A stretch of DNA of 64,000 bases, from the NCBI GenBank assembly GCA_024207135.1, contig CP042428.1, forward strand, positions 4,278,001 through 4,342,000, written 5' to 3'. The first letter of the stretch is position 1. Every line of letters starts with the position of its first letter. Origin of the DNA: Arthrobacter sp. C2 (GTDB lineage Bacteria > Actinomycetota > Actinomycetes > Actinomycetales > Micrococcaceae). Position numbers and translations under genes: made by a program. Shown piece after piece: positions 8,862-19,999 of this stretch. Below the pieces are notes generated by a model. The model had not been told where the DNA came from. It did not search any database and saw only the letters and a program-made list of their open reading frames with translations.

Positions 8862-9005
8862 GTATCCATCATGGCGCATGCGAGTCCATGACCTTGCACC
8901 CAAAAGGGGCCAAGGGCCCGCATTGTGCTGTGAACGACAAAATGCCCAGTCCCGACGCGCTTGCCAGTAAGTTTCAGTTGTAGGAAAAACGTCCCGAGGA
9001 GAACC

Positions 9006-9986
9006 GTGGCCCGACCCGAATCACACACGCACGCAGTCCCGCTCGGGCTGGCGGGTGCCGCGGGCCTGTTGATGCCCCTGCAGGCCTTGATCACCTCAAG
9101 TGCGGCCGGCTACCTGGGCGGCTACTTCGCCGCGGCGATGCTCAGTTCACTCACGTCACTGGTCTGCCTGGTGGTGGCCAGCCTCGCGCTGCCCGGAGCA
9201 CGGGAAGGCTGGCGGCGGTTCGGGACGGTATGGCGCGATCGCCCGATCCCGCGCTGGTTCCTGCTGGCGGGACTGGTGGGCGCCTACTACATGGTTGCCC
9301 AGGCCGTCAGCGTGAACAACATCGGTTTGGCGCTCTTCGCCGTCGCGGTGGTCGGCGCCCGGACGTTGACCAGCATCGTCATCGACATGATCGGTTTCAG
9401 CCCGGCGGGAAAGCAACCCATCACCCGGATACGCATCCTGGGCGCTGCACTGTTGGTGATCGGTGCCGTGATTGCCTCCTGGGGGACGGCTGCACGCATT
9501 TCCGAATCGCCCTTGGCGTGGATCTCCTTGGTGGTCGCCCTCGGCGCCGGGATCCTGGTGAGCTTCCAGCAATCAATGAACGGCCGTGCCGGCAAGGCGT
9601 ACGGGTCGACCACCACGGCCACGGCACTGAACTACCTTGCCTCCACCGCGGGCCTGCTTGTGGCCATGGTGACCCTGGCGGTACTTGACATCGAATCCTT
9701 CGGTTTCCAGATCGTGCCGCTGTGGTGGATGTACTTCGCCGGGCCCCTGGGAATCCTGTTTGTGGTCACCGGGGTAACCTTGGTGCCGAGGCTCGGGGCC
9801 CTGGTGCTTGGAATCGGGCTGGTCACGGGCCAGCTGGTGGGCTCCCTGGCGATGGACCTCTTGATCGCTCCCGAGAAAGTGGGAGGCAACGAAATCGTGG
9901 GAACCATCGTGACACTGCTCGCCGTCCTGGTCGCCTCCTGGCAACCCAACGGCAGGCCGCGATTGAGGACAGGAAATGCCACATGA
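9006..9986 (+). CDS. DMT family transporter (DUF606/YdcZ-type), first of a coupled pair
   Basis: This 326-residue integral membrane protein has about ten hydrophobic segments and the DUF606 duplicated-half layout: an N-terminal GLLMPLQALITS block, and a mid-protein FQQSMNGRAGKAYGS block that mirrors the start of the second half. The GTG at 9006 is preceded by GAGGAGA and is a better start than the TTG at 8961. The stop overlaps the next start as ATGA, so it is translationally coupled to a paralogue. DUF606 proteins are presumed transporters in the drug/metabolite superfamily; substrates are unknown. Paired genes suggest a heterodimer. Confidence 0.85.
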   Translation: MARPESHTHAVPLGLAGAAGLLMPLQALITSSAAGYLGGYFAAAMLSSLTSLVCLVVASLALPGAREGWRRFGTVWRDRPIPRWFLLAGLVGAYYMVAQAVSVNNIGLALFAVAVVGARTLTSIVIDMIGFSPAGKQPITRIRILGAALLVIGAVIASWGTAARISESPLAWISLVVALGAGILVSFQQSMNGRAGKAYGSTTTATALNYLASTAGLLVAMVTLAVLDIESFGFQIVPLWWMYFAGPLGILFVVTGVTLVPRLGALVLGIGLVTGQLVGSLAMDLLIAPEKVGGNEIVGTIVTLLAVLVASWQPNGRPRLRTGNAT

Positions 9987-10972
9987 ATCCACCAGCAACA
10001 GCCACCCGGACCAACCAGCGTTCGCTGATGCCCCTGTACCTGGCGACGGCGGTGTTTGCCGGGCTCGCGATGCCGATCCAGAGCCGCATCAACGGAGCCC
10101 TGGGCGCCAAGCTCGGGGACCCTGTGGCAGCCTCGCTGGTCAGCTTCACCACCGGGCTCATCTTGTTGGTGGTCGCCTCGCTGGTTCTGCCGGGGCCACG
10201 GGCCGGGGCGCTGGCCATTCCGCGGGCCCTGCGGGAAAAGCGCTTCCCGCTCTGGTACCTGGCCGCCGGATGCGTCGGCGCGTTCGTGGTGATTTCCCAG
10301 ACGCTCACCGTGCCGCTGGTCGGTGTCGCATTGTTCACGGTCTCCATCGTCACGGGCCAGACCCTGGGCTCCCTGCTGGTCGACAGCCTGGGCTTCGGGC
10401 CCGGGGGACGCCGGCGCATCAGCACCATCCGGGCGCTGGGTGCCATGTTGACCATTGCCGGGGTCATCTGGGCGGTCAGCCCGCGGATGGGGTCGGCCGG
10501 GGCCATCGCCACGTTGCTGGTGCCCATGGCCGTGCCCCTGGTGGTGGGCTTCCTCATGGGTTTCCAGGCCGCCATGAACGGCGTGCAGGCGCAGGCCTAC
10601 GGAACGCCGGTGGCGGCGACACTGGTGAACTTCGTGGTCGGCGGGATCCTGCTGGCCATCCTGTTGCTGGTGCGCCTGCCGATCACGGGCCCCCCGGCGG
10701 CACTGCCGACCGAGTGGTGGTACTACCTCGGTGGTCCGCTGGGCTGCGTGTTCATCGGGCTTTCGGCGTTCCTGGTCAAGCACCTCGGGGTTCTTTTGAC
10801 CGGGCTGGGAATGATCTGCGGGCAGCTTCTCGGTTCCCTGCTGATCGATGTGTTGGTGCCGGCCCCCGGCACCGTCATCGATGCCGCGACCATCGCCGGG
10901 ACGCTGCTCACCCTGGCAGCGGTGTCGCTGGCCTCGATCCCCGGCAGCACGTTCCGGCGCCTGCGCAAATAG
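9983..10972 (+). CDS. DMT family transporter (DUF606/YdcZ-type), second of a coupled pair
   Basis: This 329-residue protein is paralogous to the upstream gene, sharing LAMPIQSRINGALGAKLGD-like and MGFQAAMNGVQAQAYGTP blocks and a WWYYLGGPLG segment matching WWMYFAGPLG. About ten transmembrane helices are predicted. It starts at ATG 9983 inside the stop of the first gene, so expression should be stoichiometric, as expected for two halves of one complex. The substrate cannot be inferred; neighbouring genes give no metabolic clue. Confidence 0.85.
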   Translation: MNPPATATRTNQRSLMPLYLATAVFAGLAMPIQSRINGALGAKLGDPVAASLVSFTTGLILLVVASLVLPGPRAGALAIPRALREKRFPLWYLAAGCVGAFVVISQTLTVPLVGVALFTVSIVTGQTLGSLLVDSLGFGPGGRRRISTIRALGAMLTIAGVIWAVSPRMGSAGAIATLLVPMAVPLVVGFLMGFQAAMNGVQAQAYGTPVAATLVNFVVGGILLAILLLVRLPITGPPAALPTEWWYYLGGPLGCVFIGLSAFLVKHLGVLLTGLGMICGQLLGSLLIDVLVPAPGTVIDAATIAGTLLTLAAVSLASIPGSTFRRLRK

Positions 10973-11735: not shown

Positions 11736-14669
11736 TCAGCGCGGTCCGTCCGGGGAGGAACGTCCCGTGCCGTGGCGGGTTGCCAGGCGAGCCAGGTCCA
11801 GGCGGTTGGCGGCGCCGGTCTTGCGCAGCATGTTTGAGATGTGCGAACTGACGGTCTTTTCGCTGATGACCAGGGACCGGGCGATTTCCCCATAGGTGCG
11901 CCCGGCCACGACGTAGCCGAGGATCTCCCGTTCACGCACCGTCAGCCCCGGCAAATCAAAGGATCCGCCCGATGCCTGCCCGATGCCCGGCAGGTAGGTG
12001 GCGATCCTGGCCCGGGCCGCGATCTCCAGCAGCGAATCCTGGATGGGACGTGCGTGAAGCTCCATGACCAGGGCGAGGCCGCGGCGAAGGAATGTAGCGG
12101 CCCGCCCATGGCCGGAGTGGCCGTGAAGCAGCAGCGCCTGCACCGCCCGCCAGCAGCAATAGGCCTCCTCCCAGCGCAGGGAACCCGATTGGCAGGCATC
12201 GGCGGCGGCGGTCCACTGCGCCGGGTTTCCGGCCTCCGATCGGGCGCGCCCGGTCTCCGCCCGGTAGAGCGACTCGAAGGCGTCGACCTGCACCGAGTAG
12301 TACGGGGTGTCGTTGCCCGATTCCCGCAACACGGAGGGGAACCGTGCCACCAGCTCGTCGGTGGACGCCAGCATGCCGGCCGTGCCGCCGCCTTCGTCGC
12401 GGGCGCCCTGGACCATGTCCGCCAGGGCGCGGGCCGCCAGCGGCACCAGCCACTCGCACATGGTCGGGGGCTGGCCCTCCTTGCCGGCCCCGGCCATGGC
12501 CGCGAGGTAGGCCGCCGCGGGGTCGCCCTCTGCCAGCAGCACCTCCGCGCGGACCGCGTCGAAGTCGAGGTTGTTGTACCCGGACTTGTGCGCGAACAAT
12601 TCCTCCGCCCGGGCCAGGTGCGCCCGGGCCTCGTCCTGGCTGCCCTGCAGGGCAGCCAGGCGTGCGGCCGTCAGGCGGGCGGCGACATCGCCCAACGGGC
12701 CCGGATCCGCGCCCAGGGCCACGCGCAGCGCCTGCCCGCATTCGCGCCAGCGGCCGATCGAAAGATAGCTGCTGGCCTCGTCGGCGGCCATCTTCGACAG
12801 GTACACGTGCGGGGCGCCGAGCAGCGCCAGTTGTTGCCTGCCCGAGCGCATCAGGTCGGCAAACACCTGGCTGGTCCAGGCCTCGGTTGCGTTGGCTTGC
12901 CAGGTCGTGGCGTGGAGCAAGGCCCAGAAATCCCGGGCCCGCGCGGCCGCCCTGGCCCCCTGGGCGGCCAGCAATCGTGCCTCGTCGGGACGTTCCCCGA
13001 GCAGCGCGGCCATGGAATTGGCCGTCAGGGCGTAGGACAGGGCCCGCGGGTTTCCCGCCTCCCGGGCCACCTCCAGCGCCAGTGCTGCCTGCCTCGGTGC
13101 ATCGGGATCGTCCTTCCACAGGCGCACATGGGCGAGCTCGGCCAAGGCATAGGCATATTGCCAGCTCTCGGGGAAGGCCTGTGCCAACTGGACAGCCTGC
13201 AGCAAGGCCTCGACCGAGAGGAATTCGAGCCCCGAGGAAAAACGAAGCAAGGCACGCCGCACCATCAACTCGGCGACGTCCAGTGGCCGCTTGGCGGGGT
13301 CCAGCTCCGCCAACAGGGCCTCCAACGCACCGAGTTCATCATCCATGGCCCCGGATGCCTCGGCAGCGGTGCGCAACCGATGCAGCAGTTCCTCGCGGCT
13401 TTCATCGACCTGCGGCAGCTCTCCGTGCAGGGCCAGCGCCCGATGCAGCAGGCGCAGGATCTCGTTTGACCCGCCGGCCGATCCCGCGGCCGCGGCTGCC
13501 CGCAGCGTCCAGCGGTAGGCCTCGCCGGCGTTCCCGGCATCGTAGTGGTGTTGGGCCAGGGCCGCCATGAATTCGAAGTCCGGGGCGGTTCCCTGGGCCA
13601 GCAGCCGTGCCCCGTACGCGGCGAACAGCGCGTGCCAGTCCCGGCGCTGCCCGCTTTCCAGGCCCTGTTCCAGGACCTCCGAGATCAACGGATGGTGGAA
13701 CCACCAATGCGTCCCGTCCGGCCACCGCTCGGTGATCCCGGCCTCCGTCGTTTCCCGCAGGATGGCCGCGGCGTCGTGCCGTGTCCCGGCCTGCTGCGAC
13801 AGGCCGGCCAGGTCCTGGGCTCGGATGGGCCGCCCGCCCACCGCCATGAGCTGGGTCAGCTGCCGCGCGCCAACGGACATGCCGCGCCAGGACCGCAGCA
13901 CGGCGGACTGGAGGTCCTCAGGCAGCGTCCGGGGCAGGTGCCGCGCCTCGGGGCGTAGGCCGCTGACCATGAGCCGGTTGAGGTAGGCGTTGCCGGCGGT
14001 GCGTGAAAAGACCTCCTGCACCAGCGACTGGTGCGGCGCGGAACCCATGGCCTGGGCAATCTGGGCCCCGGTCGAGGTGCGGTCCAACGGCTCCAGCGCC
14101 ACCCAGGAGATCCGCGGCATGCGCCGGATGTCGGCCAGCCAGCGCTGCAGCGGGTGCAGTTCCCCCAGTTCGCCGCTGCGCAGCGTGGCGAGGATCGCCA
14201 GGCGCCGGCCCGCGGGCCCGGCGATGAGGTACATCAGCGCATCCAGGGTGCCCTGGTCCGCCCACTGCAGGTCATCTACGACCAAGACCACCGGCCGTAC
14301 CAGGCACAGCTCGGTCAACCAGTCATCGATTGCGACAACCACGTCGTTGGCCGCCCAGCCTCCTGGACCGAGACCGGGGGTCGGGATCCCCTCGAGAACC
14401 GGGCCACGCCGGAGGGCCGAGCGCAGCGGCAGGAACGGGACGGTCAACGAGGCCAGCGGCAGCGCGGCCCCGGCCAGGATCCACATCTCGGAGGATACCG
14501 CCGCGCAGGCATGCTGCACGAGAGCGGTTTTCCCGACACCGGGATCCCCGGAAACCACCAGGGTGCAGGCCGCACCGGATATCGCCGCCTCCAAGGACGC
14601 GCCGATGTCGTCGAGCTCCGTCGCCCTCCCCACTAGTTCCGGGCCCATCACCCCAAGTTCCAGTGCCAC
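11736..14669 (-). CDS. LuxR family transcriptional regulator with N-terminal AAA ATPase (LAL type), copy 1
   Basis: 977 residues. Residues 11-48 contain ELVGR then the Walker A GDPGVGKT (41-48); Walker B VVLVVDDLQWAD is at about 127-138. The middle is a long helical, TPR-like region. The last 70 residues form a LuxR/GerE helix-turn-helix: LTVREREILGYVVAGRTYGE, then EIARSLVISEKTVSSHISNM. LAL proteins (MalT-like) are activators that bind ATP and an inducer, oligomerise and activate transcription. This copy is collinear with copy 2 (15190-18120) over its whole length. It is divergent from a small secreted Cys protein at 14817, with 147 bases between the starts. The inducer is unknown. ATG 14669 is used; ATG 14648 (MGPELVGR) is an alternative. 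Confidence 0.9.
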   Translation of the reverse strand: MALELGVMGPELVGRATELDDIGASLEAAISGAACTLVVSGDPGVGKTALVQHACAAVSSEMWILAGAALPLASLTVPFLPLRSALRRGPVLEGIPTPGLGPGGWAANDVVVAIDDWLTELCLVRPVVLVVDDLQWADQGTLDALMYLIAGPAGRRLAILATLRSGELGELHPLQRWLADIRRMPRISWVALEPLDRTSTGAQIAQAMGSAPHQSLVQEVFSRTAGNAYLNRLMVSGLRPEARHLPRTLPEDLQSAVLRSWRGMSVGARQLTQLMAVGGRPIRAQDLAGLSQQAGTRHDAAAILRETTEAGITERWPDGTHWWFHHPLISEVLEQGLESGQRRDWHALFAAYGARLLAQGTAPDFEFMAALAQHHYDAGNAGEAYRWTLRAAAAAGSAGGSNEILRLLHRALALHGELPQVDESREELLHRLRTAAEASGAMDDELGALEALLAELDPAKRPLDVAELMVRRALLRFSSGLEFLSVEALLQAVQLAQAFPESWQYAYALAELAHVRLWKDDPDAPRQAALALEVAREAGNPRALSYALTANSMAALLGERPDEARLLAAQGARAAARARDFWALLHATTWQANATEAWTSQVFADLMRSGRQQLALLGAPHVYLSKMAADEASSYLSIGRWRECGQALRVALGADPGPLGDVAARLTAARLAALQGSQDEARAHLARAEELFAHKSGYNNLDFDAVRAEVLLAEGDPAAAYLAAMAGAGKEGQPPTMCEWLVPLAARALADMVQGARDEGGGTAGMLASTDELVARFPSVLRESGNDTPYYSVQVDAFESLYRAETGRARSEAGNPAQWTAAADACQSGSLRWEEAYCCWRAVQALLLHGHSGHGRAATFLRRGLALVMELHARPIQDSLLEIAARARIATYLPGIGQASGGSFDLPGLTVREREILGYVVAGRTYGEIARSLVISEKTVSSHISNMLRKTGAANRLDLARLATRHGTGRSSPDGPR

Positions 14670-14719
14670 AAATCCAGTTTGCCACCATCGGGCCCCGAGG
14701 GAACCGTAATCTCAGGGGT

Positions 14720-14788
14720 TTGACCGGTTTTTTAAGGGGCCGTTCCCGATGCCCCCGAGTGGGTCCAGCGAGCAAGGTTGAGGTATCG
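14720..14788 (+). promoter_or_regulatory. Shared upstream block of secreted-protein locus 1
   Basis: The 147-base divergent region contains AATCTCAGGGG (near 14708) and then a block ending in GTTGAGGTATCG (14777-14788), 28 bases before the secreted-protein start. The same order of elements, including an identical GTTGAGGTATCG, occurs upstream of the second secreted protein (18237-18248). This identity in noncoding DNA, between loci whose regulators are also paralogues, points to a common promoter or operator. Which protein binds is inference. Confidence 0.5.
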
Positions 14789-14816
14789 GAATCACTGCAC
14801 ACGAAAGGCAAGTCCC

Positions 14817-15071
14817 ATGTATTCCGCACGCAAGACAACACGGATCGCCGGCCTGGTCTTCGCCTCGCTGGCAGTGGCCCTCGCTGCTTCCTCCCCGGCC
14901 TATGCCAGGCTGGATCCCGGAGGACCAATCGTCGATGAACAAACTACGGTCAGCACCGTCACCACGGACACCTCGGCGTGTTCGCTGACACGGATCGGAA
15001 TGCAACTGGTCCACTGCGACAGCCTGACCGGGGCCGGCGTCCAGGCCCCGTCCTGGGTCCCCGAGCGCTAG
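14817..15071 (+). CDS. Small secreted Cys-containing protein 1, paired with LuxR regulator copy 1
   Basis: 84 residues. A clear Sec signal peptide: basic n-region (MYSARKTTR), hydrophobic core (IAGLVFASLAVALAAS) and an AYA cleavage site at about residue 30. The mature part is about 54 residues, Thr/Val-rich, with two cysteines (CSLTRIGMQLVHC) that could form one disulfide, then a GAGVQAPSWVPE tail. It is related to the secreted protein at 18276: both have Cys, about 10-11 residues with GxQxV, Cys, then GxGVxxPxW. The ATG at 14817 has AAAGG 8 bases upstream; an in-frame ATG at 14778 would spoil the signal peptide. I do not recognise the family. Being divergent from a giant LuxR regulator suggests a regulated secreted product or signal. 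Confidence 0.7.
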   Translation: MYSARKTTRIAGLVFASLAVALAASSPAYARLDPGGPIVDEQTTVSTVTTDTSACSLTRIGMQLVHCDSLTGAGVQAPSWVPER

Positions 15072-15088
15072 GCATCAACGACACCGGC

Positions 15089-15118
15089 TTGCCGGCCGGG
15101 CTTCGGCCCGGCCGGCAA
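15089..15118 (+). terminator. Bidirectional terminator between secreted protein 1 and LuxR regulator copy 2
   Basis: A 13-bp perfect stem (15089-15101 with 15106-15118) with a TTCG tetraloop lies between convergent genes. Confidence 0.75.
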
Positions 15119-15151
15119 ACCCATGTCGGATCCGAGGCCCGCGTGGACCGC

Positions 15152-15179
15152 GGTGTCCTGCCGCCGGTGTCCTGCCGCC
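15152..15179 (+). repeat. Tandem duplication of a 14-bp unit
   Basis: GGTGTCCTGCCGCC occurs twice back to back (15152-15165 and 15166-15179), just beyond the stop of LuxR regulator copy 2. It is a short, perfect tandem repeat with no visible role. Confidence 0.7.
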
Positions 15180-15189
15180 GGTGGCCGGC

Positions 15190-18120
15190 TCAGGGCCTGC
15201 CGTGCCCGGGCGCCCGGGCGGTTGCCTGGCCAGTGACAAGCCGGGAGAGTTCCTTGCGGTTTGCCGTGCCCGTTTTGCGCAGCATGCTCGACACGTGCGT
15301 GCTGACGGTCTTCTCGCTGATGTCCAATGCCCGGGCGATCTGGGCGTAGGTGGCACCGGAGACCACATGGCCAAGCAGCTGCCGTTCGCGCACGGTCAGG
15401 CCCGGCCATTGCACCGGGCCACCCGCAGGGGATCCCCGGACCGGTCCGAGCGTGGCGATCCCGGCCTGGGCGGCAATTTCCTTCAGCGAGGCGAGGAGCG
15501 GAAGCGCCTTGAGCCGCCCAGACAGCTCGAGTCCGCGGCGAAGGATTTCGGTGGCCATGGCGCGTTCGGTGCGGGCAGGCACCAGCAGGGCCTCCACGGC
15601 CCGCCAACAGGCATAGGCTTCCTCCCAGCACAGCGAGGTGTCCCGGAATGCATCGGCGGCCAGTACCCATTCCTCCGGGGTTCCGGTGCCGGAACGGGCA
15701 CGGCCGATCTCGGCCCGATACAGCAGCGTGAAGGCCTCGAGCTGCCGGGTGTACAGCTCGGATTCGAAGGCCTCGTGCGGCAGCCGGGGAAAACGCCGCA
15801 GCAGGTCCTCAACGAGCGCCAACAGCCCATCGGTGGGCCGGTCCTCGTCCGTGGCCCGGTGGATCAGGTCGGCCAGCGCGCGGGCGGCCAGCGGCAGCTT
15901 CCATTCGTTCATGTTCCGGCCCATGCGTTCGGGGTTGGCGTTGCGCATGGCGGCCTCATAGGCCGCGCCGGGATTGCCCGCCGCCAGGTGGACCTCGGCA
16001 CTGACGGGATCAAAGGGAAGATTCATGAACTCGGACTTCTGCGCCGAGATTTCCTCGGCACGGGCCAGGTGCGCTTCCGCCTCGTGTTGCCGGCCCTGCC
16101 ACAGCGCCAGCCGGGCGGCCGTCAGCCTGACCCCGGCATCTCCCATGATCCCGGGGTCCGAACCCAGGGCCACGCGAAGCGCCGTGCCGCATTCCCTCCA
16201 CCGGCCGATGGCCATGTAGCTGCTGGCCATGTATCCGGAGATCGTGGCGATGTACACGTGCGGGGCCCCCAACCCGGCCAGGGTCTGGCGCCCCGCCTCG
16301 AGGCAATCGATATAGGGCAGGCTGTCCCAGGCCTCCGTGGCGCTTGCCTGCCACATGATGGCGCTGAACAAGGCCCAGAAGTCCCGGGCGGGCGCCGCCG
16401 CCTCCACCGCCAGTCCCGAGAGCTCGCGGCACCGGGCCAGGTCCCCGGTGGCTATGGCGGCCATGGCGTTGGCGCTCAGGGCCGATGACAGGGCCCGGGA
16501 ATTGCCCGGCCGCCGGGCGGCGGCCAGTGCCTCGGATGCATGGGCGGCACCGCGGGGTTCGTTGTTCCACAACTCGGCAGCGGCAAGCCCGGCCAGGGCC
16601 AGGGCATATTGCCAGCTGTCCGCATCCGCACCGGCCAGTTCGACGGCGCGCTGCATCCGGGCACGTGCCAGGAACTCCCGGCCGGTGGTGAAGCGCAGCT
16701 CGGCATCCCGCACCAGCAACTCGGCCAGCTCGAGCGGCCGCTGGCCGGGGTCGGTCTCCGCGGTCAAGGTTTCGATGGCTTCCAGCTCGTCTTCCATGGC
16801 CCCCGCGTTTGCCGCGGCGGCGCGCAAGGACTTGAGCAGCGCTTCACGTTCCTGCGGGTCGTGGCCGAGGCTTCCTTGGAGCTCCAAGGCGCGGCGCAGC
16901 AGGCGCACTTCACCGACCATTCCGCCGGTTTCGGTGGCGGCCGCTGCGGCGCGCAGGGTGCATGCGAAGGCGTCGGCGGTGTTCCCGGCAGCATCATGGT
17001 GGTGGGCCAAGGCGGCCAGGGTCTCGAAATCCGCGGGGGACCCGCGATCCAGCCGCCTGGCCTCGTGTGCCGCGAAAGCCGCGTGCAACCGCCGTCGATG
17101 TCCGTTCTCGAGCCGTTGTTCGAGGACTTCGGCGATGAGCGGATGGTGGAACCACCACAGGCTTCCGCCGGGTTCGCGGTCGGTGATTCCCGCGGCCGCC
17201 GCCTCGTCCAAGAGCGCCGGTGCCTCGCCGAGTGCCGCTGGTTGCTGTACCAGGTCATCCAGGTCCTCGGCGCGCATCGGATGCCCGCCGACGGCCATCA
17301 CCTCGGTGAGCTCGCGCGTCTGGGGCGAAAGCGAATGCCAGGATCGCAGGACCGCCGCTCTCAGGTTCGCCGGCAGGCGTGGGGGCAGGTGCCGCGCGTC
17401 CGCCGGCAGACCGGAAACCATCAGCCGGTTCAGGTAGGGGTTCCCGGCCGTGTGCGAAAAAACCTCGCTGATCAAGGACCGGTGCGGTTCCGCGCCCAGC
17501 GCCTGGGCCAGCTGGGCCCCCGTCGCCGCGTAGTCCAGGGGCCCCAGCGGCAGCCAGGACACACGTGGCATGCTTCGGACATCCGCCAGCCAGCGCTGCA
17601 ACGGGCGCTCGCCGCCGACAGCGCCGCTGCGCACGGTGGCGAGGATGGACAGTGGCCTGTCGCGGGGCCCCGCGATGAGATACCTCAGGGTGTCGAGGGT
17701 GGCCTCGTCGGCCCAATGCAGGTCATCGATCACCAGCACGACCGGTCGGGCCCGGCTGACCACCGACAGCCAATTGTCGATGGCCGCAATGGAATCATTT
17801 GTTGCCTGGCCGCCGGCTCCGAATACGGGCCGGGGGAAACCTTCCTCGAGACTGGCGCCGCGGAATGCTGTGCGCAGGGGAAGGAAGGGGAGGTTTACCG
17901 AAGCCAGGGGCAGGGACTCGCCCACCAGGACCAAGGCCGCTGGATCCGCCTTTGCGCAGGCATGCCTGACCAATGCGGTCTTTCCAACGCCAGGGTCCCC
18001 GGAAACCACCAGGGTGTCCGCCATATGGGCGACGGCGCTGTGCAGCGTGTCGCCAATGAGATCCAGTTCCAGGGAGCGACCCACGAGTTCCGGACCGCTC
18101 CATTCACGATCGGGGGCCAT
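15190..18120 (-). CDS. LuxR family transcriptional regulator with N-terminal AAA ATPase (LAL type), copy 2
   Basis: 976 residues, same plan as copy 1: ELVGR at 11-15, Walker A GDPGVGKT at 41-48 (identical position), Walker B VVLVIDDLHWAD, a long helical repeat region, and the C-terminal LuxR/GerE domain LTVRERQLLGHVVSG with EKTVSTHVSSM. The two copies align nearly gap-free, so this is a duplication that has since diverged. It is divergent from the secreted protein at 18276, repeating the arrangement of copy 1. The promoter region between them carries CTGAGG-CCC-CCTCAG just upstream of the start, a possible autoregulatory site. Inducer and targets are unknown. Confidence 0.9.
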   Translation of the reverse strand: MAPDREWSGPELVGRSLELDLIGDTLHSAVAHMADTLVVSGDPGVGKTALVRHACAKADPAALVLVGESLPLASVNLPFLPLRTAFRGASLEEGFPRPVFGAGGQATNDSIAAIDNWLSVVSRARPVVLVIDDLHWADEATLDTLRYLIAGPRDRPLSILATVRSGAVGGERPLQRWLADVRSMPRVSWLPLGPLDYAATGAQLAQALGAEPHRSLISEVFSHTAGNPYLNRLMVSGLPADARHLPPRLPANLRAAVLRSWHSLSPQTRELTEVMAVGGHPMRAEDLDDLVQQPAALGEAPALLDEAAAAGITDREPGGSLWWFHHPLIAEVLEQRLENGHRRRLHAAFAAHEARRLDRGSPADFETLAALAHHHDAAGNTADAFACTLRAAAAATETGGMVGEVRLLRRALELQGSLGHDPQEREALLKSLRAAAANAGAMEDELEAIETLTAETDPGQRPLELAELLVRDAELRFTTGREFLARARMQRAVELAGADADSWQYALALAGLAAAELWNNEPRGAAHASEALAAARRPGNSRALSSALSANAMAAIATGDLARCRELSGLAVEAAAPARDFWALFSAIMWQASATEAWDSLPYIDCLEAGRQTLAGLGAPHVYIATISGYMASSYMAIGRWRECGTALRVALGSDPGIMGDAGVRLTAARLALWQGRQHEAEAHLARAEEISAQKSEFMNLPFDPVSAEVHLAAGNPGAAYEAAMRNANPERMGRNMNEWKLPLAARALADLIHRATDEDRPTDGLLALVEDLLRRFPRLPHEAFESELYTRQLEAFTLLYRAEIGRARSGTGTPEEWVLAADAFRDTSLCWEEAYACWRAVEALLVPARTERAMATEILRRGLELSGRLKALPLLASLKEIAAQAGIATLGPVRGSPAGGPVQWPGLTVRERQLLGHVVSGATYAQIARALDISEKTVSTHVSSMLRKTGTANRKELSRLVTGQATARAPGHGRP

Positions 18121-18137
18121 GTGGACAAGTGTCGCAC

Positions 18138-18152
18138 CTGAGGCCCCCTCAG
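18138..18152 (+). promoter_or_regulatory. Palindrome CTGAGG-N3-CCTCAG in the divergent region of locus 2
   Basis: A perfect 6-bp inverted repeat with a 3-base spacer lies about 20 bases upstream of LuxR regulator copy 2. Related half-sites follow at AATCTGAGGGG and near TCTGGGGGTCAG (18171-18203). AATCTCAGGGG in locus 1 is a near match. This is a candidate binding site for the LuxR-type regulators; the assignment is inference. Confidence 0.45.
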
Positions 18153-18204
18153 ACGAGAGCGCCTGGAATCTGAGGGGGGTGGCCTCCTGATCTGGGGGTC
18201 AGGT

Positions 18205-18248
18205 TCCGATGCGGCCGCAATGTGCCCGGGAGCAGCGTTGAGGTATCG
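18205..18248 (+). promoter_or_regulatory. Shared upstream block of secreted-protein locus 2
   Basis: GTTCCGATGC ... GAGCAGCGTTGAGGTATCG parallels GTTCCCGATGC ... GAGCAAGGTTGAGGTATCG at locus 1. The identical 12-base core is at 18237-18248, 27 bases before the ATG. It is conserved between two otherwise diverged intergenic regions. Confidence 0.5.
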
Positions 18249-18275
18249 AATTCAGGAAATATGGAAGGTGGCATC

Positions 18276-18578
18276 ATGTTTTTCCCGCACAAGGCGTCGG
18301 GGGTCACCGGCTTGGCCGCCAGCCTACTGTTTTTGACGGGTCTGGGCTCTCTATCCGCGATGGCAACGGCAGACCCAGCACCGACTGGGACGACGATCCA
18401 AGAGACAACCACGTACTTTTGCGTGCTGCCAGGGGTTGGGGGGCAAGTGGTTCGTTGTGTCTGTCCCGCCGGTGACGGCGTCGGTACTCCGCCGTGGCTG
18501 CATAAGCCTGAACAGGGCCTGGCCCATTTCCCGGTCCTTCCGGGCCACGGTGGAAAGACCCGGGTGTCCCGGACATGA
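18276..18578 (+). CDS. Small secreted Cys-containing protein 2, paired with LuxR regulator copy 2
   Basis: 100 residues. Signal peptide with a short basic start (MFFPHK), hydrophobic stretch VTGLAASLLFLTGLGSLS and likely cleavage after AMATA (about residue 32). The mature part shares the plan of secreted protein 1: a TTT-rich segment, CVLPGVGGQVVRC, then GVGTPPW. It has a third Cys (RCVC) and a 20-residue extension with GLAHFPVLPGHGG that protein 1 lacks. GGAAGG lies 7 bases before the ATG. The stop overlaps an ATG of the downstream lipoprotein frame (ATGA). It is not a family I recognise. A secreted effector, a surface peptide or a signal are all possible. Confidence 0.65.
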   Translation: MFFPHKASGVTGLAASLLFLTGLGSLSAMATADPAPTGTTIQETTTYFCVLPGVGGQVVRCVCPAGDGVGTPPWLHKPEQGLAHFPVLPGHGGKTRVSRT

Positions 18579-18766
18579 CTCGGTCCTTTTGGCGGGAATT
18601 TGCCGGGTGGCGGCGTCCGAGCGCAGTGCACATTCCGTGCGGCCTCGTGGGCACAGCGCTTTTCGGCGAACCACATGAACCCCCTGCTACTGTGCCATCG
18701 CACCCAAGTGAATTCCCGTTTGTGGACCGGCCCGATCTGGCGCCGACCACGACACGTTTCTTCCCC

Positions 18767-19372
18767 TTGGACAAGAAGCACTGGGCGTTTTATCTCATGG
18801 TCGCCATCACAGTTGTCTCGACCCTTTCGGGGTGCACCGCGGTGGTCAATGACGTGGACGTGGCCACCACCGAGCTGTCGTCCCGCCGCACGCCCCAGCC
18901 ACCCGTTGCCATGCTTCCGCCGGCCGTCGCCACCCCCACCATGTCGGCTGCCCCGGATCCACAACAGGCATCGCGCAGCATCGAGGCGCTGCTGCGCTCC
19001 GGCGAACACCCGCTGGCCGGTGCCGTCCCGGGTTCCGAGCAGGTCCTGCTCAGTGTCGAACGTAACCGCGGCTTCTCCTTCGCCCTCCCTGCCCGGGCCA
19101 GGGGCGTGTACTTGTGGATCGCGGTGCGCTGCAGGCGTCCGGTTCCGCTGTCGCTGCTGGCCTTCGACGCCGCCGGCCGCACCACGCTCATGTACACGCC
19201 GGACCACTGCCCTGGGGCCGACTTGGTGGCCGGGCCCCTGGACACCACGGAAACCAGAGGCATCCTCACCATCCCGAACGGCTCCCCGTTGCATTTCACG
19301 CTGGTCTCCGGCCAACTCGCGAACGCCGATGACCGGGCAGGCACCCGTTGGCCGCGAAAATTCCTGCGGTGA
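18767..19372 (+). CDS. Lipoprotein, paralogue of the next gene
   Basis: The likely start is TTG 18767, giving a lipoprotein signal (MDKKHW n-region, hydrophobic core, lipobox LSGC with Cys at residue 23) and 201 residues. The frame is open back to ATG 18575, which overlaps the secreted-protein stop, but those 64 extra codons have low third-position GC and would bury the lipobox, so I reject them. The mature protein has a Pro/Thr-rich linker and then a domain with GEHPLAGAVPGSEQVLLS, LWIAVRC and a second Cys in DHCPG. The neighbouring lipoprotein shares this domain, including the PGSExVL and CR motifs. Function unknown; the location would be the outer face of the membrane. Confidence 0.6.
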   Translation: MDKKHWAFYLMVAITVVSTLSGCTAVVNDVDVATTELSSRRTPQPPVAMLPPAVATPTMSAAPDPQQASRSIEALLRSGEHPLAGAVPGSEQVLLSVERNRGFSFALPARARGVYLWIAVRCRRPVPLSLLAFDAAGRTTLMYTPDHCPGADLVAGPLDTTETRGILTIPNGSPLHFTLVSGQLANADDRAGTRWPRKFLR

Positions 19373-19381
19373 TGAACGGAC

Positions 19382-19999
19382 ATGAAGGATCTCGCCCGCG
19401 AGTCCGGCCCGGCGCGGCGTTCAGGTCCAGGACCACATCCCTTCCTTGCCCTGGCAGCCCGGCTGTGCTTGGTGTGCCTGGCCACCGGGTGCACCCCGCT
19501 CAACGTAGAGCCCCCGCCCACTGGTGAGCCCGGTCCACCGGTTACCGGGCCGTCCTTCATCCCCGAAACCCAGGTCTTGCCCGTGGTCCCTTCCCCGCAC
19601 GAACCCGGCGGGGGCACCAGGCGCCCGACCCATGCAGAGCTCATTGCCCAAGGCAAGAGCCCGTTGCCCGGTGCCCTGCCTGGCAGCGAAAAGGTCCTGA
19701 TGCACTTCCACGGCAAGGGCGAGGCCAGGATCGTGCTGCCGGCCCAACGTTCCGGCGCGCTGCTGTGGATCCTGGTCGGCTGCCGGAGCGAGGCGCCGTT
19801 GACCATCCGGTCGCTGAACCTCTACGGCGTCGTGGTGGCCCGCTACGATCTGGAGCCTTGCCGTGAGGCCGAGGGCGGCGGGGGCACCGAGGACGGCACC
19901 TCGACCCTGGTGGAGATCTGGACCAGCCCGGACGTGGAGTACGACCTGAGTGTCATTTCCTCGGAGCCACGCACCGGCAGGGGCGTGCCCGAACGATGA
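19382..19999 (+). CDS. Lipoprotein, paralogue of the previous gene
   Basis: 205 residues with an Arg-containing n-region, hydrophobic segment LALAARLCLVCLATGC and lipobox Cys at residue 37. A Pro-rich linker follows, then a domain with SPLPGALPGSEKVLMHF, LLWILVGCRSEAPL and a second Cys in EPCRE. This domain matches the upstream lipoprotein position by position around PGSExVL and the two Cys residues, so the pair arose by duplication. It starts 9 bases after the previous stop, in one operon with the secreted protein. Not recognised beyond this. Confidence 0.65.
   Translation: MKDLARESGPARRSGPGPHPFLALAARLCLVCLATGCTPLNVEPPPTGEPGPPVTGPSFIPETQVLPVVPSPHEPGGGTRRPTHAELIAQGKSPLPGALPGSEKVLMHFHGKGEARIVLPAQRSGALLWILVGCRSEAPLTIRSLNLYGVVVARYDLEPCREAEGGGGTEDGTSTLVEIWTSPDVEYDLSVISSEPRTGRGVPER

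What the first reader, a model, noticed from the sequence alone, without database searches (positions are those of the whole stretch)
11736..19999. Duplicated regulator/secreted-protein modules: two giant LuxR ATPases each facing a small Cys-containing secreted protein
Two collinear 976-977 aa LAL-type regulators each have a divergent gene for a small Sec-exported protein. The two small proteins are themselves related (Cys, GxQxV, Cys, GxGV, PxW). Three components match between loci: regulator, intergenic DNA and exported product. The second locus adds two paralogous lipoproteins. I know of no named system with this composition. A possible reading is a secreted signal or surface system controlled by its own LAL activator; duplication with divergence would give two specificities. 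Seen: paralogy and gene order. Known: LAL proteins are inducer-dependent activators. Inferred: the signalling role.
Basis: partly seen in the sequence, partly recalled or inferred. Interest (0 to 1): 0.8.

Follow-up and report, generated by a model that had tools for sequence, protein, structure and literature searches.

The report
Giant regulator dedicated to secreted mini-protein
In soil actinobacteria a very large ATP-driven gene switch sits back to back with a gene for a tiny exported protein, joined by a DNA control site found almost nowhere else in the genomes checked, which makes a small testable circuit whose trigger and purpose are not yet known.

Summary
Two LAL regulators (ATPase, predicted helical repeats, LuxR HTH) each face a small predicted Sec-exported protein (sp). 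In 395 genomes of the family, 27 of 29 genes of this LAL subfamily have an sp beside them; the other two face a diverged small exported ORF or a broken sp. The pair also occurs in Agromyces and Microbacterium, while neighbouring genes change. sp matches nothing in Pfam or NCBIfam (consensus CPLxRIGTQLVRCDxLTGAGVxAPxWIPEQ).

New central result: a three-part operator, TYTSAGG-N13-15-TYTSAGG-N6-7-CCSGATG, in 41 of 43 LAL-linked or LAL-remnant loci tested and 0 of 11 scored sp genes without LAL. In six genus genomes its right half matches perfectly only at these pairs. LAL therefore looks like a dedicated regulator of sp.

The second module is an in-genus duplicate. Its regulator plus operator is an exchanged allelic block that leaves sp2 behind, which argues against sp2 being its matching ligand. 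Best reading: an inducible switch for a secreted mini-protein. A STAND-based peptide pheromone remains possible (0.2). DNA binding, trigger, secretion and activity are untested.

The parts
11736..14669 (-). LAL1 regulator, 977 aa: AAA_16 ATPase, helical repeats, GerE HTH
14710..14751 (+). operator 1 (two TYTSAGG direct repeats and CCSGATG), 1 of 21 mismatches
14817..15071 (+). sp1, 84 aa, predicted Sec-exported, Cys-x11-Cys, conserved C-terminus
15089..15118 (.). perfect 13-bp hairpin after sp1, likely shared terminator with LAL2 (inference)
   Evidence: -41.6 kcal/mol for 15072-15130, z -6.3
15190..18120 (-). LAL2 regulator, 976 aa, duplicate; lies in an exchanged allelic block of about 15120-18240
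18169..18211 (+). operator 2, one base longer spacer, 2 of 21 mismatches
18276..18578 (+). sp2, 100 aa, predicted Sec-exported, third Cys and C-terminal tail
18575..19372 (+). lipoprotein-like ORF 1 (true start probably downstream); local, not part of the conserved module
19382..19999 (+). lipoprotein-like ORF 2, paralogue of ORF 1; local, not part of the conserved module

Best explanation
A self-contained inducible switch dedicated to an exported mini-protein. LAL is a MalT/Apaf-1-like STAND protein. On binding an unknown inducer (probably a small molecule, as reported for the LAL RevU) it assembles with ATP and binds the three-part operator through its GerE HTH domains: two direct repeats about 21 bp apart plus a third element. 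This turns on sp, its main or only target, and probably affects its own divergent promoter, which must overlap the operator. sp is exported by Sec, forms one disulphide in most lineages and acts outside the cell as the output of the circuit (binding, competition or protection). In the window the module is duplicated and the copies have diverged. Shown by sequence: the pairing, the operator and its rarity, the duplication, the block exchange, selection on sp. Inferred: DNA binding, activation, inducer, secretion, disulphide, what sp does.
For: 27 of 29 LAL genes have a divergent sp in neighbourhoods that differ between lineages. Operator in 33 of 33 LAL-linked or remnant loci (0 of 100 shuffles each as good) and 8 of 10 more; 0 of 11 sp genes without LAL, also with 450 bp upstream. 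Perfect right-half matches only at the pairs in six genus genomes. Where the order of genes differs (L197, LAL downstream and co-directional) the operator is still in front of sp. Both genes are broken together in G217, G090 and G234. dN/dS of sp below 1 in every pair with a usable value. LAL model: ATPase, repeats, HTH; Foldseek lists a STAND-TPR protein first, then Apaf-1 and MalT among the top ten. LAL2 and its operator moved as one block.
Against: No binding, expression or secretion data. Ten of 39 sp loci have no LAL beside them, so sp can live without it. Two frameshifted LAL copies in G144 sit beside intact sp. Nine one-mismatch right-half sites lie elsewhere in the six genomes (3 in the reversed-pattern control) and were not examined, so other targets are not excluded. 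Foldseek TM-scores are low (0.15-0.35 by query length) and the sp model is poor (pLDDT 54). The sp activity is a guess.
Confidence: 0.6

Rival explanations
1. Peptide pheromone circuit. sp is a propeptide; its exported, processed C-terminal part re-enters the cell and binds the repeat domain of its own LAL, giving autoinduction and density sensing: an actinobacterial analogue of RRNPP systems built on a STAND protein, here with two channels.
For: Adjacent exported peptide of 84-100 aa and a repeat-containing intracellular regulator with HTH; strongest conservation at the sp C-terminus; duplicated pairs with diverged operators; LAL2 alleles exchanged between species, as recognition types can be.
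Against: The LAL2 allele changed (65%) while the sp2 core did not (83% overall); sp core is constant across genera; ten sp loci lack LAL; the operator gives hardly any downstream regulon; Cys pair suggests a folded product rather than a short free peptide.
Confidence: 0.2
2. Exported bacteriocin-like or competition protein under a LAL that senses rivals or stress; duplication and allele swapping track an arms race. A special case of the best explanation in which the sp activity is killing or inhibition.
For: Small, exported, disulphide-prone product; fast change and exchange of the regulator.
Against: No immunity gene is conserved beside sp; the sp core is highly conserved, not diversifying; no match in Pfam, NCBIfam or PADLOC.
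Confidence: 0.13
3. Coincidental neighbours: the small ORFs are not functional partners of the regulators.
For: Ten of 39 sp loci lack LAL; no expression data.
Against: 27 of 29 pairing in changing neighbourhoods, operator linkage 41 of 43 against 0 of 11, joint decay, dN/dS.
Confidence: 0.03

Closest known systems
LAL regulators of the MalT type, including RevU of Streptomyces
   Same: Size above 900 aa, N-terminal ATPase, C-terminal LuxR HTH (RevU and its beta-carboline ligand BR-1 from passages of PMC9659744); MalT appears in the Foldseek list
   Different: Output here is a tiny exported protein rather than a metabolic or antibiotic gene set; operator appears private to the pair; inducer unknown
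PimR (SARP-LAL) and its operator in Streptomyces natalensis
   Same: A LAL-containing regulator with a unique target gene and direct-repeat operators (abstract of PMC5930380)
   Different: PimR binds heptamers with 4-nt spacers through a SARP domain and targets a regulator gene; here there is no SARP, the repeats are about 21 bp apart and the target is an exported protein
RRNPP peptide quorum sensing (Rap, PlcR, Rgg and others)
   Same: Adjacent exported propeptide of 10-100 aa and an intracellular regulator with TPR-like repeats (criteria from passages of PMC10075063)
   Different: Receptors there are 250-500 aa and described from Firmicutes and their elements; here about 970 aa with an ATPase; ligand role untested

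Membership tests
[quoted passage not shown]
   977 and 976 aa; AAA_16 E 1.6e-18 and 1.8e-21; GDPGVGKT and VVDDLQWAD-type motifs in A5
[quoted passage not shown]
   GerE E 2.1e-16 and 1.1e-14 at residues 908-963
[quoted passage not shown]
   No biochemical data; recalled for MalT
RRNPP quorum sensing | Receptor of 250-500 aa | tested here: not met
   976-977 aa; criterion from PMC10075063 passages
RRNPP quorum sensing | Receptor with TPR-like repeats | tested here: inconclusive
   Helical repeats in the model, STAND-TPR and other TPR proteins in the Foldseek list, but low TM-scores; no TPR family in Pfam at E <= 1
RRNPP quorum sensing | Adjacent exported propeptide of 10-100 aa | tested here: met
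   84 and 100 aa, adjacent; export judged by eye from the N-terminus, no signal-peptide program was available
RRNPP quorum sensing | Imported peptide binds the receptor | not testable with these tools
   None

The most novel reading that the evidence does not exclude
A new class of actinobacterial cell-cell communication: a STAND/LAL receptor with its own exported disulphide mini-protein as autoinducer, duplicated into two channels whose receptor alleles are swapped between species like recognition types.
Probability: 0.2. Interest if true: 0.85.

Novelty: new variant of a known kind. Interest (0 to 1): 0.58.

Why it matters
LAL regulators are common in actinobacteria, yet few of their triggers and direct targets are known (recalled). 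This module offers a LAL with a sharply defined operator, one evident target, natural duplicates, natural broken copies and a natural receptor swap, so inducer and specificity can be attacked directly. It also defines a family of exported mini-proteins without a match in Pfam or NCBIfam.

Tried and rejected
PDB sequence search with the sp profile: best E 1.8, no relative. Defence-system reading: PADLOC matched only the HTH region. A sigma-70 promoter scan found nothing, and its two terminator-like hits do not exceed the shuffles. A first motif regex printed nothing because its spacing was wrong. The corrected one is insensitive: it missed sp genes known in L151, L156 and L195-L201. So its failure to find sp beside the eight distant LALs of L072-L076 and L078-L080 (about 30% identical) is weak evidence, and these were not followed further. 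Lipoproteins as a core part: rejected, absent in G003. Rows dropped before counting: hits above E 1e-10, nearly all of which reach only the N-terminal or middle part of the model; G883, G915 and G936 for the same reason; near-identical copies of loci already counted (L136-L143, L146, L147, L153). The orphan sp starts are uncertain, so their operator test was repeated with 450 bp upstream with the same result.

Full report
Observation. The window holds two collinear modules, each a LAL regulator on the minus strand facing a small gene (sp) on the plus strand. Both regulators match AAA_16 and GerE. The small proteins and the two lipoprotein-like genes match nothing in Pfam or NCBIfam at E <= 1, or PADLOC at E <= 0.001. 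sp1 and sp2 are homologous (E 4e-06). Export is judged by eye from a basic start, a hydrophobic stretch and an Ala-x-Ala-like site; no signal-peptide program was available.

Where it lies. The modules sit between an AhpD-like gene and glycyl-tRNA synthetase (gene names from sequence, recalled). Of 15 genus genomes, 6 carry the regulator: G000, G003, G006 and G010 have both modules, G005 and G011 one. All six have an sp beside it. G008 keeps only about 100 residues of a LAL there and had no sp hit.

Conservation of the pair. In 395 genomes of the family 24 carry this LAL subfamily at E <= 1e-100: 30 rows, two of them halves of one G090 gene, so 29 genes. 27 of 29 have an sp divergently adjacent, counting the truncated LAL of G234, whose sp has lost its start region. 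The exceptions are G231, which faces a small exported-looking ORF without the Cys motif, and G090, where sp has lost its C-terminal motif and LAL is split. In the other direction, 39 sp hits in 31 genomes reach E <= 1e-10: 29 lie beside a LAL or its remains and 10 do not within the stretches read, two in genus g45 and eight in g10. Named relatives include three Agromyces and Microbacterium ulmi, with LAL at 46-50% identity to LAL1. In 396 genomes of the order 8 had an sp hit; in 326 of the phylum 5 did, three of which match only the N-terminal part, leaving G000 and G1055. G1055 shows only short LAL matches near its sp. Flanking genes differ between lineages.

The small protein. Thirty members share a variable N-terminus followed by a conserved end, CPLxRIGTQLVRCDxLTGAGVxAPxWIPEQ. 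Two Cys, 11 residues apart, are present in 29 of 30. G165 has lost both together, which fits a disulphide (inference); the order-level member in L200, outside that alignment, lacks the first. sp2 has a third Cys and a tail. dN/dS is 0.15-0.64 among sp1 orthologues, 0.16-0.84 among sp2 orthologues and mostly 0.1-0.4 in 28 wider pairs. The high values come from close pairs with few changes. The AlphaFold model is poor (pLDDT 54), with short strands between the Cys.

The operator. Upstream of sp lies TYTSAGG-N13-15-TYTSAGG-N6-7-CCSGATG. In one search, 33 of 33 LAL-linked or LAL-remnant loci scored have at most 4 of 21 mismatches, and in no case is one of 100 shuffles as good. The 11 sp genes without LAL that could be scored have 5-9; all are shuffle-like except L196 (2 of 100); one locus was masked. 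With 450 bp upstream the same 11 have 5-7, and 7 to 97 of 100 shuffles are as good. L114 keeps a CCCGATG at the usual place, perhaps a remnant. One search adds 10 LAL or remnant loci: 8 have 0-2 mismatches (G231 and G090 have none), while truncated G234 has 8 and remnant G008 has 6. Together that is 41 of 43 against 0 of 11. The pattern was built from part of these loci, so the order-level members (L195, L197-L201), G231, G090 and the loci without LAL are the fairer tests.

Rarity. In six genus genomes the zero-mismatch right-half matches fall only at the pairs. Nine one-mismatch sites lie elsewhere, against three for the reversed control pattern, and were not examined. The G003 sp2 site is too diverged for that pattern. 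The full fixed-spacing pattern with up to 2 mismatches hit 1 of 198 genomes in the order and 2 of 183 in the class, the window's own site counted in both; the other is a two-mismatch site in G912. It misses spacer variants such as operator 2 and L195, so these are lower bounds. Where LAL is co-directional and downstream (L197), the operator is still in front of sp.

Regulator. The model (mean pLDDT 81) shows ATPase, long helical repeats and HTH. Foldseek lists the STAND-TPR protein 6mfv first, with Apaf-1 and MalT in the top ten, at low TM-scores. This fits a ligand-gated switch but does not name the ligand.

Duplication and exchange. A tree of 36 regulators places the ten genus copies in one clade (100/100), with LAL2 sister to LAL1 plus the single copies. 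The duplication is thus within the genus, and G005 and G011 probably lost module 2 (inference). Between the window and G010, LAL1 is 95% identical but LAL2 only 65%. Nucleotide identity is 63-80% across LAL2 and 88-98% in LAL1, sp1, sp2 and the lipoprotein genes. The window groups with G006 and G010 with G003, unlike the flanks. The edges are sharp, near 15.12 kb just after the sp1 hairpin and near 18.24 kb between the operator and the sp2 start region. Regulator and operator moved together and sp2 stayed (83%). Fast divergence without exchange is possible, but the edges and the conflicting grouping favour recombination.

Decay. G217 (LAL in several frames, sp with an in-frame TGA), G090 and G234 have both genes broken. 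G602 (L201) keeps an HTH remnant, a good operator and an sp with a worn C-terminus. Against this, G144 has two LAL copies split by frame beside sp genes that look intact, besides a third complete pair, and ten sp loci have no LAL.

Literature. Five searches listed no paper whose title or abstract start describes such a pair; the library lacks most subscription journals. I saw the outline and abstract of PMC5930380 and passages of PMC3466318, PMC9659744, PMC10075063 and PMC4748050.

Reading. Best supported: a dedicated inducible switch for an exported mini-protein (0.6). The pheromone reading is kept at 0.2: adjacency, repeats and the conserved C-terminus speak for it; the near-private operator, the receptor swap without sp2, sp genes without LAL and the constancy of sp across genera speak against it.

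Noticed in passing
window 15120-18240: Allelic exchange block of LAL2 plus operator with sharp edges; two allele types shared across species of the genus.
   Followed up: partly
L069 6500-7100: G003 has a short nucleotidyltransferase-like ORF and another ORF where the window has the two lipoproteins; variable cargo behind sp2.
   Followed up: no
L107, L112, L113, L119, L121, L122: In some Arthrobacter-type genomes (g45) a very large exported-looking protein lies in the same neighbourhood as the pair (cluster 7).
   Followed up: no
L197 6430-7150: Between sp and a co-directional LAL lies a small lipoprotein-like ORF with two Cys and a PPW.
   Followed up: no
   Followed up: partly
L147 and L122: A record titled Sporosarcina beigongshangi REN13 has the contig length of G234, which the genome collection places in the window's family; the title may be wrong.
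   Followed up: no
window 8961-10972: Two adjacent paralogous membrane transporter genes (DMT-like by recall), 37-39% identical to each other's orthologues.
   Followed up: no
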